Source: an uncultured Armatimonadota bacterium (GTDB lineage: Bacteria; Armatimonadota; Fimbriimonadia; Fimbriimonadales; Fimbriimonadaceae). Taken from it: DNA of 64,000 bases. Both the position numbers and the translations under genes were made by a program. Where the stretch lies: contig CAIUHP010000028.1 in assembly GCA_903899015.1 (NCBI GenBank), positions 62,001 to 126,000 on the forward strand, read 5' to 3'. Below are positions 12,375 through 19,040 of this stretch, piece by piece. How positions within the stretch are numbered: the stretch's first letter is position 1; each line of letters opens with the position of its first letter. Under the pieces are notes generated by a model that did no database searches, was not told where the DNA came from, and worked only from the letters and a program-made list of their open reading frames with translations.

Positions 12375-14618
12375 GTGCCGAACCGATTAGCGATTGAGAC
12401 CTCTCCGTATCTTCTTCAACACGCGGAGAACCCCGTCGATTGGTACCCGTGGGGTGACGAGGCGTTCGAGATTGCCAAGCAAACCGACCGTCCAGTCTTT
12501 TTAAGCGTCGGGTACTCATCCTGCCACTGGTGCCACGTGATGGCTCACGAGTCGTTTGAGGACGAGCAAGTTGGCAAGCTTCTAAACGATGGCTTCGTGT
12601 GTATCAAAGTGGACCGCGAGGAGCGTCCCGATGTTGACGAGGCTTACATGACGGCCGTACAACTGATGACTGGTCGAGGCGGTTGGCCCATGAGCGTATT
12701 CATGACACCGGACCGCAAGCCATTTTTAACGGGTACGTATTGGCCCAAGGAAGATCGCGACGGCCATATGGGTTTTGTCGGCGTTCTGAATCAGGTGATG
12801 TCAGCTTGGAGCACGAAGAGAGCGCTGGTAGACGAATCGGCAGATAAGATCGCGGAGGCTCTCGAACAAGCGCTGAGCACCAAGCCGCCTGAATCAAACG
12901 CATCGTTCGACTTCGCGTTTGTGGACCAAGCCGTTACCACTTTGATTGCCGACTTCGATCAAGTTAATGGTGGGTTTGGCACGGCGCCCAAGTTTCCACC
13001 CCATTCCGCAATCGAATTTTTGTTCCGCTACGCAACATCTCCGTCCAAGGATGTTGAACTCCAAGAAGCTGCCTTAAGCGCAGGATTGTTCACGCTGCGC
13101 AGCATGGTGCTCGGAGGAATCCACGATCATGTTGGAGGCGGTTTCCATCGCTATTCGACTGACGCGAGCTGGCTCCTTCCGCACTTTGAGAAAATGCTTT
13201 ACGACAATGCCCTGATGCTTGGCAACCTTGCCAACGCAGTTGGGATTTGTTCAGAGCTAGAACCGAGCCTGGCCGAGCTCTTTTCTCGCACCGCTCAGAC
13301 CCTCGTCGATTGGCTCATGCGCGAGATGACTAGCGAGGAAGGGTTCTTCTATTCCGCTCTCGATGCTGACAGTGAAGGGGAAGAAGGGAAGTTCTATGTT
13401 TGGAGCGTTCAGGAAGTCGTAGAAATCCTGCAGCACCATGCACCCGTTTTCCTGGAGTCCTTTCAGTTCCAAGTCGAAGGCAACTTTGAAGACGAGGCTA
13501 CTCGACGAAAGACGGGCGCTAACATTCCTCACTTGAAGCAAGACCTTGCGGGACAGTTCTTACAAGAACTAGAAATGCTTCGAGTGGCAAGAGAAACTCG
13601 AGTCCGGCCTGGCCTTGACGATAAAGGGCTGATAGGCTGGAACGGTTTGATGATCGGGGCATTGGGAGACGCGGCCTTATGGCCACTTGCTCAAAACGCC
13701 ATTGTGGCCATTCTTTCGGCAGAGAAGAAACTCGGTCACCTACCACACCAAATCTCGAAGGGCGTTCCATCCGGTCATGCATATCTTGAGGACTACGCGA
13801 ACCTCGTTCAAGGCATTATCAAGCTCGCAGTCTGCCACGGATTTATGGAGGATCAAGGCGAATTGCCTCCTCAAGCGATTCCGGCTGATGTCTTATTTAA
13901 CGTTGCCAAGCGACTTTGCGATGAAATGGTCGCCAAGTTTTACGATGAACAAGACGGGGCATTCTTCTCAACTTCTTCGGAACACGAGACTTTGTTTGGC
14001 CGAACCAAGCCGGTCTTTGACCAACCCATTCCAAGTGCAAACGCAGTCGCGATTCGTTGCTTGATCCAACTAGGTGAAGAAGAGAAGGCACGAAAGAGCA
14101 TTCAGGCACTGCTTGGATGGATGCAACGCGCACCCCAAGCAACCGAATCTCTCTACTCAGCAGCGATGCTGTTGTTGGATCCTCCTGGAGATTTGCCAGC
14201 TGAATCGGTTGAATTGCCTGCTGAGGCCGTCGTCGCGGCACCTGCCCCAATCGCACCTAAGCCTGAGGTGAAAGTTTCGATCTCCAGTCGAGAGTTTGTA
14301 GCGGCGGGAGACGGCACTGGTAGTGCTTCGATAACCATCAGCGTTCCTGAAGGCTTGCACTTGAATTCAGCGACACCGCCAGCTCGATGGCTTGTCCCGA
14401 CCAAGCTGACCATCAATGGACTCAAATCGACCATCAAGTACCCAGAAGCAACGAACGATCGATATGAAGGCGAAGTAACGATTCCGTTTACCGTTCAGCT
14501 CCCGGCCGGAGAGTCTGGCGCTGAGTTTGAAGTGGTCGTCAGTTATCAAGCCTGCACAGAATCCGAGTGTCAAGAACCCAAAGAAAAGGTCTTGTCCGCG
14601 GTGGTTGTTCGGGGGTAA
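12375..14618 (+). CDS. DUF255 (YyaL/SSP411) protein fused to a DsbD-N-like domain
   Basis: A 747-residue fusion. Residues 1-~165 are the thioredoxin-fold DUF255 domain: [24 protein letters not shown] (Cys50, Cys53), [24 protein letters not shown]. Residues ~170-600 form the (alpha/alpha)6 barrel typical of SSP411/YyaL ([27 protein letters not shown]). After an Ala/Pro linker (~620-640), residues ~640-747 look like the N-terminal domain of DsbD, including [12 protein letters not shown] where DsbD-N has its paired cysteines. Normal YyaL proteins end near 650-690. The GTG at 12375 has no ribosome site; TAAACT lies 5 bases upstream. There is no signal peptide, so a DsbD-N domain inside the cytoplasm is puzzling. 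Confidence 0.88.
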
Positions 14619-14768: not shown

Positions 14769-15422
14769 CTAGTTCATCGACAATTTGGTTTCGTCCCTAG
14801 TTGAAGCATCTAAACCTCGAGCCGAGATCAAGACATCCAACCTTTTTCGACTATCGGAATTTGCCGAACTCCAAGCCCATTTAGTCGGATCGGAGCAAAG
14901 GTTCGCCTTCATTGGATTCCATTCGATGTAGTTCTTCACGCCTTCGAGATGGTCGGAGTCACGAATGTACCGGTCGAAGAAGCCCGGTTGCCAGAGTCGT
15001 CCGCTTCGTCCTAACAGTTGGTTGATCTTTACGGATGAAGCGCCTTTAATCCCCTTGACTACCTTCTCAAGTCTGGCATTTGTCGGAGTGAGTAGGACAT
15101 GCATATGGTTTGGCATGACGACCCATGCGTGCAGCTCATATTGCTTTCCGTGGTTCTCGAAAAGCTGTTCTTGCGCCAAGCGTGCGACTCTTGGATCCTT
15201 GAGCAGGCACTCGCCGTAGCCCTTGTCGCAATACTCATTAACTAATTGCGCAATCTTTCGAATTCTTATTTGATCGTCCTGATGTGCGAGTTCTCGTTCC
15301 CATTCTTTGAGGACTTTTGCTGGCAATGAGTCAGCTAGTCTCCACGTGAGGAACTGGGTGACAGAACCTCCATCGTAGTGGGGAATATAGCCCCTCGAAT
15401 ACCAGCCTCTTGGGTCCTTCAC
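14769..15422 (-). CDS. REP-associated tyrosine transposase (RAYT, Y1/HUH family)
   Basis: A 217-residue protein of the TnpA-REP branch of IS200/IS605-type HUH enzymes. Key features: the HUH motif in VVMPNHMHVLLT (His106-Met-His108), the GRLWQPGFFDRYIRD stretch typical of RAYTs, and YIEWNPMKANL, whose Tyr165 is the likely nucleophile. The N-terminus starts with an FLTWRLADSLP-type strand. Length is normal (160-240). All catalytic residues appear intact. The gene stands alone, enclosed by inverted double-hairpin repeats. RAYTs are usually domesticated single-copy genes acting on REP sequences as single-stranded DNA. Confidence 0.93.
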   Translation of the reverse strand: MKDPRGWYSRGYIPHYDGGSVTQFLTWRLADSLPAKVLKEWERELAHQDDQIRIRKIAQLVNEYCDKGYGECLLKDPRVARLAQEQLFENHGKQYELHAWVVMPNHMHVLLTPTNARLEKVVKGIKGASSVKINQLLGRSGRLWQPGFFDRYIRDSDHLEGVKNYIEWNPMKANLCSDPTKWAWSSANSDSRKRLDVLISARGLDASTRDETKLSMN

Positions 15423-16038: not shown

Positions 16039-16055
16039 GGCGACTCCTTTATGCA

Positions 16056-16091
16056 TAAAAACGCCCCCGACGACGTGAGTCGACGGGGGCG
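16056..16091 (-). terminator. Terminator after isocitrate dehydrogenase
   Basis: An 8-bp GC stem (CGCCCCCG at 16062-16069 with CGGGGGCG at 16084-16091), extended by four more pairs after one mismatch, is followed on the minus strand by TTTTTATG. Intrinsic terminator nine bases after the stop. Confidence 0.9.
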
Positions 16092-16099
16092 ATTTTGTG

Positions 16100-17098
16100 T
16101 TAGCGAAGTTCGCTAGCAACGGCTTCAGCGAATCCGCTTGTTGTTGCGGTGCCGCCGAGGTCGTAAGTTTTGATTCCTTTTGCGAGGGTAGCTTCGAGAG
16201 CTCCTTCAATGTTCTTTCGAGCGTCATGCTCACCTAGGTGGTCGAGCATAAGGGTGCCGGAGAGCAGGAGCGCGGTCGGATTGACCTTGTTCATGCCGGT
16301 GTACTTCGGGGCGGAGCCGTGAACGGCTTCGAACAAAGCGCACTTCTTGCCATAGTTGGCACCCGGTGCAACGCCGAGTCCACCCATCATTCCGGCCGCG
16401 AGGTCGGAGACGATATCGCCATAAAGGTTGGGCATAACCAGAACATCGTAGATGTTCCACTTCGTGACAAGCTGCATGCACTGATTGTCGACGATGTTAT
16501 CCCAGCTTTCGATGTCGGGATATTCTGCGGCGACTCGCTTGAACGCTTTCAAGAAAACGCCGTCGCCGATCTTCATGATGTTGGCTTTGTGAACTCCAAC
16601 CACCTTCTTCCGTCCGTTTGCACGGGCGTATTCGAATGCGGCTCGAATGATCTGCTCACTTGCCGAGTCACTGATGATCTTCACGGAGTGCGCCACGGTC
16701 TCAGTTGCCATGTACTCAATCTGGGTGTAAAGATCTTCCGTGTTCTCTCGGAAGATGACGATGTCAAGATTCTTGAACGGAGTCGGAACACCTGGCAGTG
16801 ATCGAACAGGTCGAACGCAGGCGAAAAGGTCAAGCTTCTTTCGGAGCGTAACGTTTGGGCTAACGGAGCCCTTTCCGATGGGCGTGGTCATCGGAGCCTT
16901 CAGGCCGACGCCGATCTCTTTGATCTTCGCGACGGTTTCTTCGGGAACAATCGGCTTTCCAGCCTCAACGCACTTAAGGCCAGCTTCAACATCGATCCAA
17001 TCGATATTGACTTTGGCGGCCTTGAAAATTACTTCGACGCCGGCGACCAACTCAGGTCCAACGCCGTCTCCTCGAATTAAACAAACTTTGTGTGCCAT
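16100..17098 (-). CDS. Isocitrate dehydrogenase, short decarboxylating type
   Basis: A 332-residue beta-decarboxylating dehydrogenase. Isocitrate rather than isopropylmalate is indicated by GKGSVSPNVTLRKKLDLFACVRP (Ser and Asn that hold isocitrate, followed by the three Arg/Lys region) and IFRENTEDLYTQIEYM. Further motifs are NIVDNQCMQLV and NLYGDIVSDLAAGMMGGLGVAPGANYG. The 332-residue length matches NAD-IDH (IDH3-like) forms, or the catalytic part of the ~480-500-residue NADP-IDH of Thermus/Rickettsia type. The latter carry a C-terminal domain that is missing here but seems to be encoded just upstream (17260-17562). An AAAGAGAA ribosome site precedes the ATG. Cofactor preference is not decided. 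Confidence 0.9.
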   Translation of the reverse strand: MAHKVCLIRGDGVGPELVAGVEVIFKAAKVNIDWIDVEAGLKCVEAGKPIVPEETVAKIKEIGVGLKAPMTTPIGKGSVSPNVTLRKKLDLFACVRPVRSLPGVPTPFKNLDIVIFRENTEDLYTQIEYMATETVAHSVKIISDSASEQIIRAAFEYARANGRKKVVGVHKANIMKIGDGVFLKAFKRVAAEYPDIESWDNIVDNQCMQLVTKWNIYDVLVMPNLYGDIVSDLAAGMMGGLGVAPGANYGKKCALFEAVHGSAPKYTGMNKVNPTALLLSGTLMLDHLGEHDARKNIEGALEATLAKGIKTYDLGGTATTSGFAEAVASELR

Positions 17099-17259
17099 TT
17101 TTCTCTTTGGGGTTTAGGGTCTGGGGGATGGGCTCAAGAATTTTGGGGACTACTTTCTTGCTCTCCATCTCTCCGTACGATCTCCTAAGCTAGAAACTCG
17201 GTCTTTTGAGCCGAAGCGAGACAGACGAGTCTCAACTTACAGGCTCTAGGCCGGTGTCT

Positions 17260-17562
17260 CTAGTAAGGTTGACTGAACGCGTTGTCTCCGTCGATCTTGA
17301 ACAGCTTTTGGCACTTAGTCCACTGCCAGCCAAGACCGGAAAGGGTCGCTACCAAATCATCGATCTGAGCATCGGTAACACTCGCGTCGCTCAAGTAGCG
17401 GCACTGTTGCCAATCGCTGAGTTCCATTTCAGGAGCAGGTGGCGGCCAAACTCGGCTGCCTCGGTTGGAAATCAGAATGAGAGCGAAGGGACCATGTTCC
17501 TTCGGAAGGTCGGGAATCTCTGGGGTGCGAATAAAAATGTCTACCCCGTGCAAAGTCATCAT
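17260..17562 (-). CDS. Stand-alone IDH C-terminal-domain-like protein
   Basis: A 100-residue protein beginning MMTLHGVDIFIRTPEIPDLP. Its pattern, GVDIFI, then ALILISNRGSRVWPPP, WQQCRYLSD, and a closing WTKCQKLFKIDG, is what I recall of the C-terminal extension of bacterial NADP-IDHs of the Thermus/Rickettsia class (Isocitrate_DH_C). It lies on the same strand, 161 bases upstream of the shortened IDH. The ATG at 17562 has AAGGA 10 bases upstream; a TTG at 17598 is the longer option. I infer a domain supplied in trans, perhaps for assembly or regulation of IDH. It was recognised from memory, so it needs a profile search. Confidence 0.65.
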   Translation of the reverse strand: MMTLHGVDIFIRTPEIPDLPKEHGPFALILISNRGSRVWPPPAPEMELSDWQQCRYLSDASVTDAQIDDLVATLSGLGWQWTKCQKLFKIDGDNAFSQPY

Positions 17563-17644
17563 TTGTTGCTTGTCCTTATTAAGTTCGGTCAGGTGCAATG
17601 CGATTATGGGAAAGCCAGTGCAGGGAAGTCAAACGACAACACCG

Positions 17645-17650
17645 TATACT
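17645..17650 (+). promoter_or_regulatory. -10-like TATACT box, possible leaderless start
   Basis: TATACT lies 7 bases before the ATG at 17658, and there is no Shine-Dalgarno sequence. If it is a -10 element, transcription would start at or next to the ATG. No clear -35 element is present 17 bases upstream. Confidence 0.4.
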
Positions 17651-17657
17651 GCAAAAC

Positions 17658-19040
17658 ATGGCTCAAACCATCGGCTTCTATGGCGCAGCTGAGACGGTAA
17701 CCGGCTCTCGGCACCTTCTTCGAGTTGGCAAAAACACAATTCTCGTTGACTGCGGTCTTTTTCAAGGAAATAAGGAATTGCGGCAGCGCAATTGGGAAGA
17801 ATTGCCCATTGAGCCCCATGAGCTTGATGCGGTCGTTATCACCCACGCCCACCTGGACCACATCGGTTGGATTCCACGGCTCGTAAAGGAAGGCTATCGG
17901 GGACCGATTTATGCCACAAAAGCGACGATCGAGCTCTGTCGAATCTCGTTGCCCGACAGTGGCAGGCTTCAAGAAGAGGACGCTCACTTTTCTAACAAGC
18001 ATGGAGGAGGACATCATCCTTCCTTGCCTTTGTACGATGAGAAAGATGCGTTCGAGTGTCTGAAGTATTTCAAGCCGGTGGAATACAACACACTCCACTC
18101 ACTTCCTGGCCATGCGCAATTCCGATTCCTTCCCGCAGGTCACATCTTAGGTTCTGCCTTTGCCGAGATTACATTCGAAGACGGAACGAGCCTGATGATG
18201 TCAGGCGATCTTGGTCGGTACAACAACCCGATCATCAAAGACCCAACATGCATTGAGTCGGCCGATTTCTTGGTGATCGAAAGCACTTACGGTGATCGCC
18301 TTCACTCGGACGAGAATCCGCTTGAGAAAATCGCATCCATCGTGCACGAGACGATGACAAACGCGGGGGCACTGATCATCCCATCTTTTGCGATTGGTCG
18401 AACTCAAGAGTTGATGTACTACTTCCGGAAGCTCCAAGATCAAGGTCGAATGCCACGAATTCCGATTTATATCGACTCGCCGATGGCCGTTTCGGTTACT
18501 CGTGTCTACGCGTCCGCTCGAGAAGAACTGGATGAGGAAATGCTTGCTTCGGTTGAAGCGGGACGGAGCGAATTGGAACCCGATGGCGTGATCTTTGTTC
18601 GGGATCGAGAGATTTCTAAAACTCTCAATCAGCAGCGAGGACCACTGATCATCATCAGCGGAAGCGGAATGGCAAATGGTGGACGTGTGACTCACCACTT
18701 ACAGCATCGGTTGGGTAATCCCAATACGACGGTGTTATTTACCGGTTATCAGGCTGAGGGAACGCTGGGCCGACGTTTGATTGAGGGAGCACCGGAAGTT
18801 CACATTCACGGGCAAGTCGTAGATGTTCGGGCACGGATTGAAAAAGTCAACGCGCTTTCTGCCCATGCCGACCAAGGAGAAATGCTTCGATGGCTCAGCG
18901 GATTTAAGAAGGCTCCCAAGATGACCTTCATTGTTCACGGAGAACCAGAAGCTCAAGCTGTCCTTCAACGGAAGATCGAAGAACAGTTCGGCTGGTCAAC
19001 CGTTATTCCGAAGCAGGCCGAAGAGTTCTCCCTGGGGTGA
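17658..19040 (+). CDS. Metallo-beta-lactamase/beta-CASP RNA-processing nuclease
   Basis: A 460-residue nuclease of the CPSF73-like bacterial branch. The zinc site is HAHLDH (about residues 58-63), followed by the LPAGHILGSAF histidine and SGDLGRY aspartate. The beta-CASP part includes VIESTYGDRLH, IPSFAIGRTQELMYY and SGSGMANGGRVTHH. The RMMBL tail has ALSAHADQGEML and the final FIVHGEPEA histidine. All metal and catalytic residues are intact. It should cut RNA endonucleolytically, perhaps in rRNA maturation or mRNA decay. The start ATG at 17658 gives the natural MAQTIGFYGAAETVTGSRHL N-terminus; longer in-frame starts run through the intergenic region. Confidence 0.93.
   Translation: MAQTIGFYGAAETVTGSRHLLRVGKNTILVDCGLFQGNKELRQRNWEELPIEPHELDAVVITHAHLDHIGWIPRLVKEGYRGPIYATKATIELCRISLPDSGRLQEEDAHFSNKHGGGHHPSLPLYDEKDAFECLKYFKPVEYNTLHSLPGHAQFRFLPAGHILGSAFAEITFEDGTSLMMSGDLGRYNNPIIKDPTCIESADFLVIESTYGDRLHSDENPLEKIASIVHETMTNAGALIIPSFAIGRTQELMYYFRKLQDQGRMPRIPIYIDSPMAVSVTRVYASAREELDEEMLASVEAGRSELEPDGVIFVRDREISKTLNQQRGPLIIISGSGMANGGRVTHHLQHRLGNPNTTVLFTGYQAEGTLGRRLIEGAPEVHIHGQVVDVRARIEKVNALSAHADQGEMLRWLSGFKKAPKMTFIVHGEPEAQAVLQRKIEEQFGWSTVIPKQAEEFSLG

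What the first reader, a model, noticed from the sequence alone, without database searches (positions are those of the whole stretch)
16100..17562. Isocitrate dehydrogenase split from its C-terminal domain
The 332-residue IDH lacks the C-terminal extension of Thermus/Rickettsia-type NADP-IDH. A 100-residue gene 161 bases upstream on the same strand carries the pattern GVDIFI ... ISNRGSRVWP ... KCQKLFKIDG that I associate with that extension. A free-standing copy would be a trans-acting subunit controlling assembly or activity of a TCA-cycle enzyme, and it is placed before rather than after the catalytic gene, so it is not a simple frameshift split.
Basis: partly seen in the sequence, partly recalled or inferred. 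Interest (0 to 1): 0.75.

Follow-up and report, generated by a model that had tools for sequence, protein, structure and literature searches.

The report
Two-gene (split) isocitrate dehydrogenase
A central energy-metabolism enzyme, isocitrate dehydrogenase, is encoded here as two neighbouring genes instead of one, its C-terminal domain being a separate small protein encoded just before the catalytic part, and the same arrangement (in either gene order) is conserved in three bacterial phyla and is the only isocitrate dehydrogenase found in several of their genomes.

Summary
The 100-aa ORF (17260-17562, -) matches Pfam Isocitrate_DH_C_bact (PF18324; 58 bits, cut-off 25). Its predicted fold matches the C-terminal domain of Thermus IDH (2d1c 386-493, Z 11.2). 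The 332-aa IDH 161 bp downstream lacks that domain.

It is not a local accident. All 60 split pairs checked are adjacent on one strand. The solo domain comes first in 37 genomes (two families of the window's order, and Bipolaricaulota) and second in 23 (Nitrospirota type). In relatives the partner IDH clade and the solo domain co-occur 17/17 versus 0/44. In Bacteroidota all 109 copies of the domain are fused. Solo domains form one clade (100/92) and their IDHs another (90): probably one split, then a swap of gene order. Both genes are under strong purifying selection. Several genomes have no other IDH.

Best reading: a heteromeric, probably NADP-dependent IDH whose 'C2 clasp' acts in trans as a structural subunit. 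Binding and stoichiometry are inferred: the one paired structure prediction did not dock the parts confidently (pTM 0.71). Control of activity is untested. I found no description of a free-standing domain in the open literature searched. New variant of a known enzyme kind.

The parts
17260..17562 (-). Free-standing IDH C-terminal (C2 clasp) domain, 100 aa, ATG at 17562, stop at 17260-17262
   Evidence: PF18324 58.2 bits; 2d1c 390-491 by sequence; model to 2d1c 386-493, Z 11.2, rmsd 2.8, 91 aligned
16100..17098 (-). Catalytic IDH subunit, 332 aa, without C-terminal extension; NADP-type motif HGSAPKY
   Evidence: PF00180 323 bits over profile 1-348; closest solved structure 6ltf; motif
17099..17259 (-). 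161-bp spacer between the two genes; no terminator-like site found on this strand
16058..16092 (-). Strong hairpin followed by a T run just after the IDH stop; probable transcription terminator
   Evidence: fold of 16050-16100 (-): -28 kcal/mol, z -6.3; terminator-like hits at 16061-16083
17603..17632 (-). Promoter-like site TTGACT-18-CATAAT ahead of the small gene; weak evidence, number found equals chance
   Evidence: 1 found, 1.1 expected

Best explanation
The two genes encode one heteromeric isocitrate dehydrogenase. The 332-aa protein is the catalytic subunit, predicted NADP-dependent. The 100-aa protein is the C2-clasp domain that in Thermus-type IDH is the C-terminus of the same chain. 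Made separately, it is expected to sit over the clasp at the interface of the IDH dimer, as the fused domain does in the Thermus enzyme, giving an assembly such as two catalytic plus two clasp chains. There it would stabilise the oligomer and perhaps tune opening and closing of the active site. Shown here: domain identity, conserved pairing with one IDH clade, purifying selection, and that the pair is the only IDH found in some genomes. Inferred: physical binding, stoichiometry, place of binding and effect on activity.
For: PF18324 and 2d1c matches. All 60 split pairs read are adjacent on one strand. The partner IDH clade co-occurs with the solo domain 17/17 and is absent from the other 44 relatives. 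Solo domains one clade, partner IDHs one clade. dN/dS about 0.03-0.08. No other IDH in G040, G042, G044, G046, G048, G052, G291, G352, G354 apart from a LeuB-like protein in some. The fused domain forms a clasp over the dimer in the Thermus enzyme (PMC3521221). Hairpin only after the second gene.
Against: No direct evidence of binding. The Nitrospirota read-through pair gave pTM 0.71, near what the IDH part alone would give, and its domain is not placed as in 2d1c (rmsd 10.6 over 419 residues). Many related IDHs work without any such domain, so it is not needed for the fold. Adjacency of the genes could reflect shared regulation only.
Confidence: 0.75

Rival explanations
1. The small protein is a regulator, not a permanent structural part: it binds the IDH reversibly, perhaps with a small ligand, and switches TCA-cycle flux.
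For: It is a separate gene product. The model also resembles ACT-type and PII-like domains at Z about 6-7, but such Z values are common for this arrangement.
Against: The fused homologue is a fixed part of the Thermus enzyme. No ligand-site evidence. Z under 8 is not informative.
Confidence: 0.15
2. The small protein serves the fused 504-aa IDH of the same genome instead of the neighbouring short IDH.
For: The window's genome has such a fused IDH.
Against: Genomes of family f5 have the split pair and no fused IDH; the domain is always next to the short IDH; the fused IDHs carry their own domain.
Confidence: 0.02
3. The small protein is an assembly factor (chaperone) for the IDH that leaves once the dimer has formed.
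For: It is encoded first in the unit here, so it would be made before the catalytic chain. Its most conserved loop (about residues 32-50) is predicted poorly ordered on its own.
Against: The fused homologue stays in the mature Thermus enzyme. In Nitrospirota the domain is encoded second.
Confidence: 0.06
4. A decaying remnant of a gene fission, without function.
For: Related IDHs without the domain exist.
Against: Conserved length and motifs across three phyla, dN/dS about 0.03-0.08, invariant residues G6, D8, R34, G35, R55, W81 and others.
Confidence: 0.01

Closest known systems
Thermus/Rickettsia-type NADP-IDH ('subfamily IV'; TtIDH, PDB 2d1c; NCBIfam PRK09222)
   Same: Same two building blocks: Iso_dh core and PF18324 domain; NADP-type K-Y motif in nearly all split IDHs
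   Different: The domain is a separate protein, encoded before the core here and after it in Nitrospirota; neither part nor their sum (385 + 47.5 bits) reaches the PRK09222 cut-off of 509
Fused IDHs of Bacteroidota/Ignavibacteriota (L092, L101, L108, L128, L155)
   Same: Among the fused domains closest to the solo ones in the domain tree
   Different: One chain; D-I motif, which suggests NAD use
Short dimeric bacterial IDHs (e.g. Xanthomonas 6ltf/6m3s, Methylococcus 6lky)
   Same: Closest solved structures to the 332-aa core
   Different: No PF18324 domain, fused or free, is part of them
Mitochondrial NAD-IDH (IDH3; yeast Idh1/Idh2)
   Same: An IDH built from more than one gene product, with non-catalytic subunits
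   Different: IDH3 subunits are all Iso_dh paralogues; here the second subunit is an unrelated small domain

Membership tests
PF18324 Isocitrate_DH_C_bact (domain family) | Score above the Pfam gathering cut-off over most of the profile | tested here: met
   58.2 bits against 25, profile 2-106 of 110; all 17 aligned solo domains match
PF18324 Isocitrate_DH_C_bact (domain family) | Fold of the C-terminal domain of 2d1c | tested here: met
   Z 11.2, rmsd 2.8, 91 residues, next match 7.0
Subfamily IV (Thermus/Rickettsia) IDH | 480-500-residue chain with the extra C-terminal region in the same chain | tested here: not met
   332 aa and 100 aa as two ORFs; PRK09222 cut-off not reached
Subfamily IV (Thermus/Rickettsia) IDH | Iso_dh core plus PF18324 domain acting together | tested here: inconclusive
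   Both parts present and always adjacent; binding not shown
Subfamily IV (Thermus/Rickettsia) IDH | Core branches with Thermus IDH | not tested
   The Thermus sequence was not in the tree; the core branches apart from the fused IDHs of its own phylum
NADP-dependent IDH | K-Y at the coenzyme-specificity site (K344/Y345 of E. coli IDH, from established knowledge) | tested here: met
   HGSAPKY in the window IDH and nearly all split IDHs; D-I in L049, R-Y or P-L in four others
NADP-dependent IDH | Measured activity with NADP | not testable with these tools
   needs the purified enzyme
Mitochondrial heteromeric NAD-IDH (IDH3) | All subunits are Iso_dh paralogues | tested here: not met
   The second protein has PF18324 only

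The most novel reading that the evidence does not exclude
A TCA-cycle IDH whose clasp has become a separable, possibly ligand-responsive subunit, so that cells in three phyla (including Nitrospira-type bacteria) can set IDH assembly or activity through a 100-residue protein.
Probability: 0.2. Interest if true: 0.75.

Novelty: new variant of a known kind. Interest (0 to 1): 0.55.

Why it matters
It adds a two-gene form of a textbook enzyme and gives a functional assignment to a small protein in genomes of the window's order (probably Armatimonadota), Bipolaricaulota and Nitrospirota. In several of these the pair appears to be the only IDH. Because the same domain exists fused and free, in both gene orders, it is a natural experiment on what the C2 clasp of Thermus-type IDH does.

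Tried and rejected
Reading the window pair as one chain for docking needed a four-letter frame-shifting step that the structure tool does not accept; I did not pursue it. A first mixed alignment misplaced the domain rows (A3) and was not used. A Nitrospirota read-through pair was modelled instead, without confident docking. A degenerate-DNA search with the domain alignment was not possible. The weak Gp54 hit (E 0.05) is below its cut-off and ignored. L052 and the half-match in L168/L208 are cut by contig ends and were not counted as split pairs; L052 carries a 'solo' label in the domain tree but lies among fused domains. No Rfam element was found in the region. The only plasmid match is a Deinococcus IDH. 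Literature searches for PF18324, for the Pfam name, and for IDH with Fimbriimonas, Nitrospira, Leptospirillum or Armatimonadetes gave no description of a free-standing domain; most subscription journals, including the primary TtIDH structure paper, are not held.

Full report
Observation. The window holds, on the - strand, a 100-aa ORF (17260-17562) and, 161 bp further on, a 332-aa IDH (16100-17098). The small protein is a clear member of Pfam PF18324, the C-terminal domain of bacterial IDH (58.2 bits, cut-off 25). By sequence it matches residues 390-491 of Thermus thermophilus IDH (2d1c). Its predicted structure (mean pLDDT 87) aligns to residues 386-493 of 2d1c with Z 11.2, well above the next match at 7.0. 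The IDH covers the whole Iso_dh profile and stops before the extension.

Where it lies. The window is part of a 4.9-Mb genome that is 99.9% complete. Its identity is not given. Apart from relatives fetched here, the genome's second short IDH is closest to one from a record titled Chthonomonas, which suggests Armatimonadota; this is inference. The genome has four Iso_dh proteins: the split one, a fused 504-aa-ORF IDH with its own PF18324 domain, a short one (343-aa ORF) and a LeuB-like one. Among them the split IDH alone carries the K-Y motif that, from established work on E. coli IDH, marks NADP use; the other three have D-I.

Conservation and pairing. Of 61 related genomes, 17 have the solo domain, and all 17 have it directly upstream of an IDH of the same clade, with gaps of 9-161 bp except one of 520 bp. 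A profile of these IDHs scores 631-692 bits in exactly those 17 genomes and at most 455 bits elsewhere. That profile was built from those 17, so the high scores are expected; the informative part is the gap to the rest. A search of 291 genomes of the phylum finds solo domains only in two families of the window's order. Fifteen further cases were fetched and all show the same order. The closest pairs give dN/dS of about 0.03-0.08 for the domain and 0.035-0.044 for the IDH; several synonymous distances are saturated.

Beyond the order. The same arrangement occurs in Candidatus Bipolaricaulota: the solo domain is in 6 of 100 genomes, of which 5 could be checked, all domain first (the sixth is cut by a contig end). 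In Nitrospirota 35 of 198 genomes have the domain, nearly all in short ORFs, and in all 23 Nitrospirota-type loci read the IDH comes first and the domain second (one of these, L113, has a record title that names Nitrosospira). In 395 genomes of the Bacteroidota group, by contrast, all 109 domain matches lie in ORFs of at least 460 aa, i.e. fused. So fission is lineage-specific and not an effect of the search. In all, 60 distinct split pairs were read: 37 domain first and 23 domain second (one of its 38 domain-first rows is a duplicate).

Trees. Apart from the contig-cut L052, solo domains form one clade (bootstrap 100, SH-aLRT 92), and their IDH partners form one clade (SH-aLRT 90). Each gene order is one side of a branch in the IDH tree. 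The simplest history is a single split, one later swap of gene order, and a transfer between the window's order and Bipolaricaulota; the direction is not determined. Within the window's order the distances of the two proteins correlate (r 0.87; 0 of 300 permutations as high), which is expected for linked genes and is not proof of binding.

Function. In genomes G040, G042, G044, G046, G048 and G052 and in Bipolaricaulota G291, G352 and G354, the only other Iso_dh protein, if there is one, has the score and length of LeuB (that reading is inferred), and no monomeric IDH is present. If these cells have IDH activity, the split enzyme provides it, as far as the assemblies are complete. In the fused Thermus enzyme the extra C-terminal region forms a clasp-like structure (C2) over the clasp of the dimer (PMC3521221; see also PMC4360740). 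I therefore read the small protein as the same clasp acting in trans. The most conserved loop of the domain (about residues 32-50, SNRG...PP) has low confidence when the domain is modelled alone, as would be expected of a segment that orders on a partner; that is inference.

Limits. The only paired structure prediction made was a Nitrospirota IDH-domain pair read through one stop codon. It folded both parts but gave pTM 0.71, close to the 334/467 expected from the IDH alone. Against 2d1c it aligns 419 residues with rmsd 10.6, so the domain is not placed as in the Thermus chain. A single chain cannot show a clasp made across two chains, and no native fused control was run, so this neither supports nor refutes binding. 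Regulation is untested. A promoter-like site before the small gene is no better than chance. The hairpin after the IDH is strong (z -6.3) and there is no terminator-like site in the spacer, which fits one transcription unit.

Verdict. Real, conserved and, as far as the open literature searched shows, undescribed as a free-standing subunit. It is a split variant of a known enzyme, not a new kind of system.

Noticed in passing
L043:4540-4950 (-): In genome G036 a 23S rRNA-intervening-sequence protein gene (PF05635, 129 bits) lies between the solo domain and the IDH, the only pair with a 520-bp gap.
   Followed up: partly
window 14769-15422 (-): Y1 transposase (IS200-like, PF01797) downstream of the IDH; no repeats looked for.
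   Followed up: no
window 17598-19040 (+): Beta-CASP/RMMBL metallo-beta-lactamase RNase-like protein, divergent from the solo-domain gene and starting 35 bp from it.
   Followed up: no
window 12375-14618 (+): DUF255 thioredoxin-type protein (PF03190) with a C-terminal stretch matching DsbD_N just below its cut-off (24.3 of 25 bits).
   Followed up: no
L022-L034 and L073-L082 (family f2 of the same order): Several genomes of this family hold two fused IDHs, one with the K-Y motif and one with D-I and a divergent PF18324 domain.
   Followed up: partly
L001, L007-L021 (fused IDHs of the window's family): The coenzyme site of these fused IDHs varies (D-I, L-L, P-L, M-I, Q-I, G-L), which may mean NAD use or another substrate.
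   Followed up: no
L049 (G027), L197, L199: Split IDHs of one genus (g9) have lost the K-Y motif (D-I or P-L), suggesting a change of coenzyme inside the split clade.
   Followed up: no
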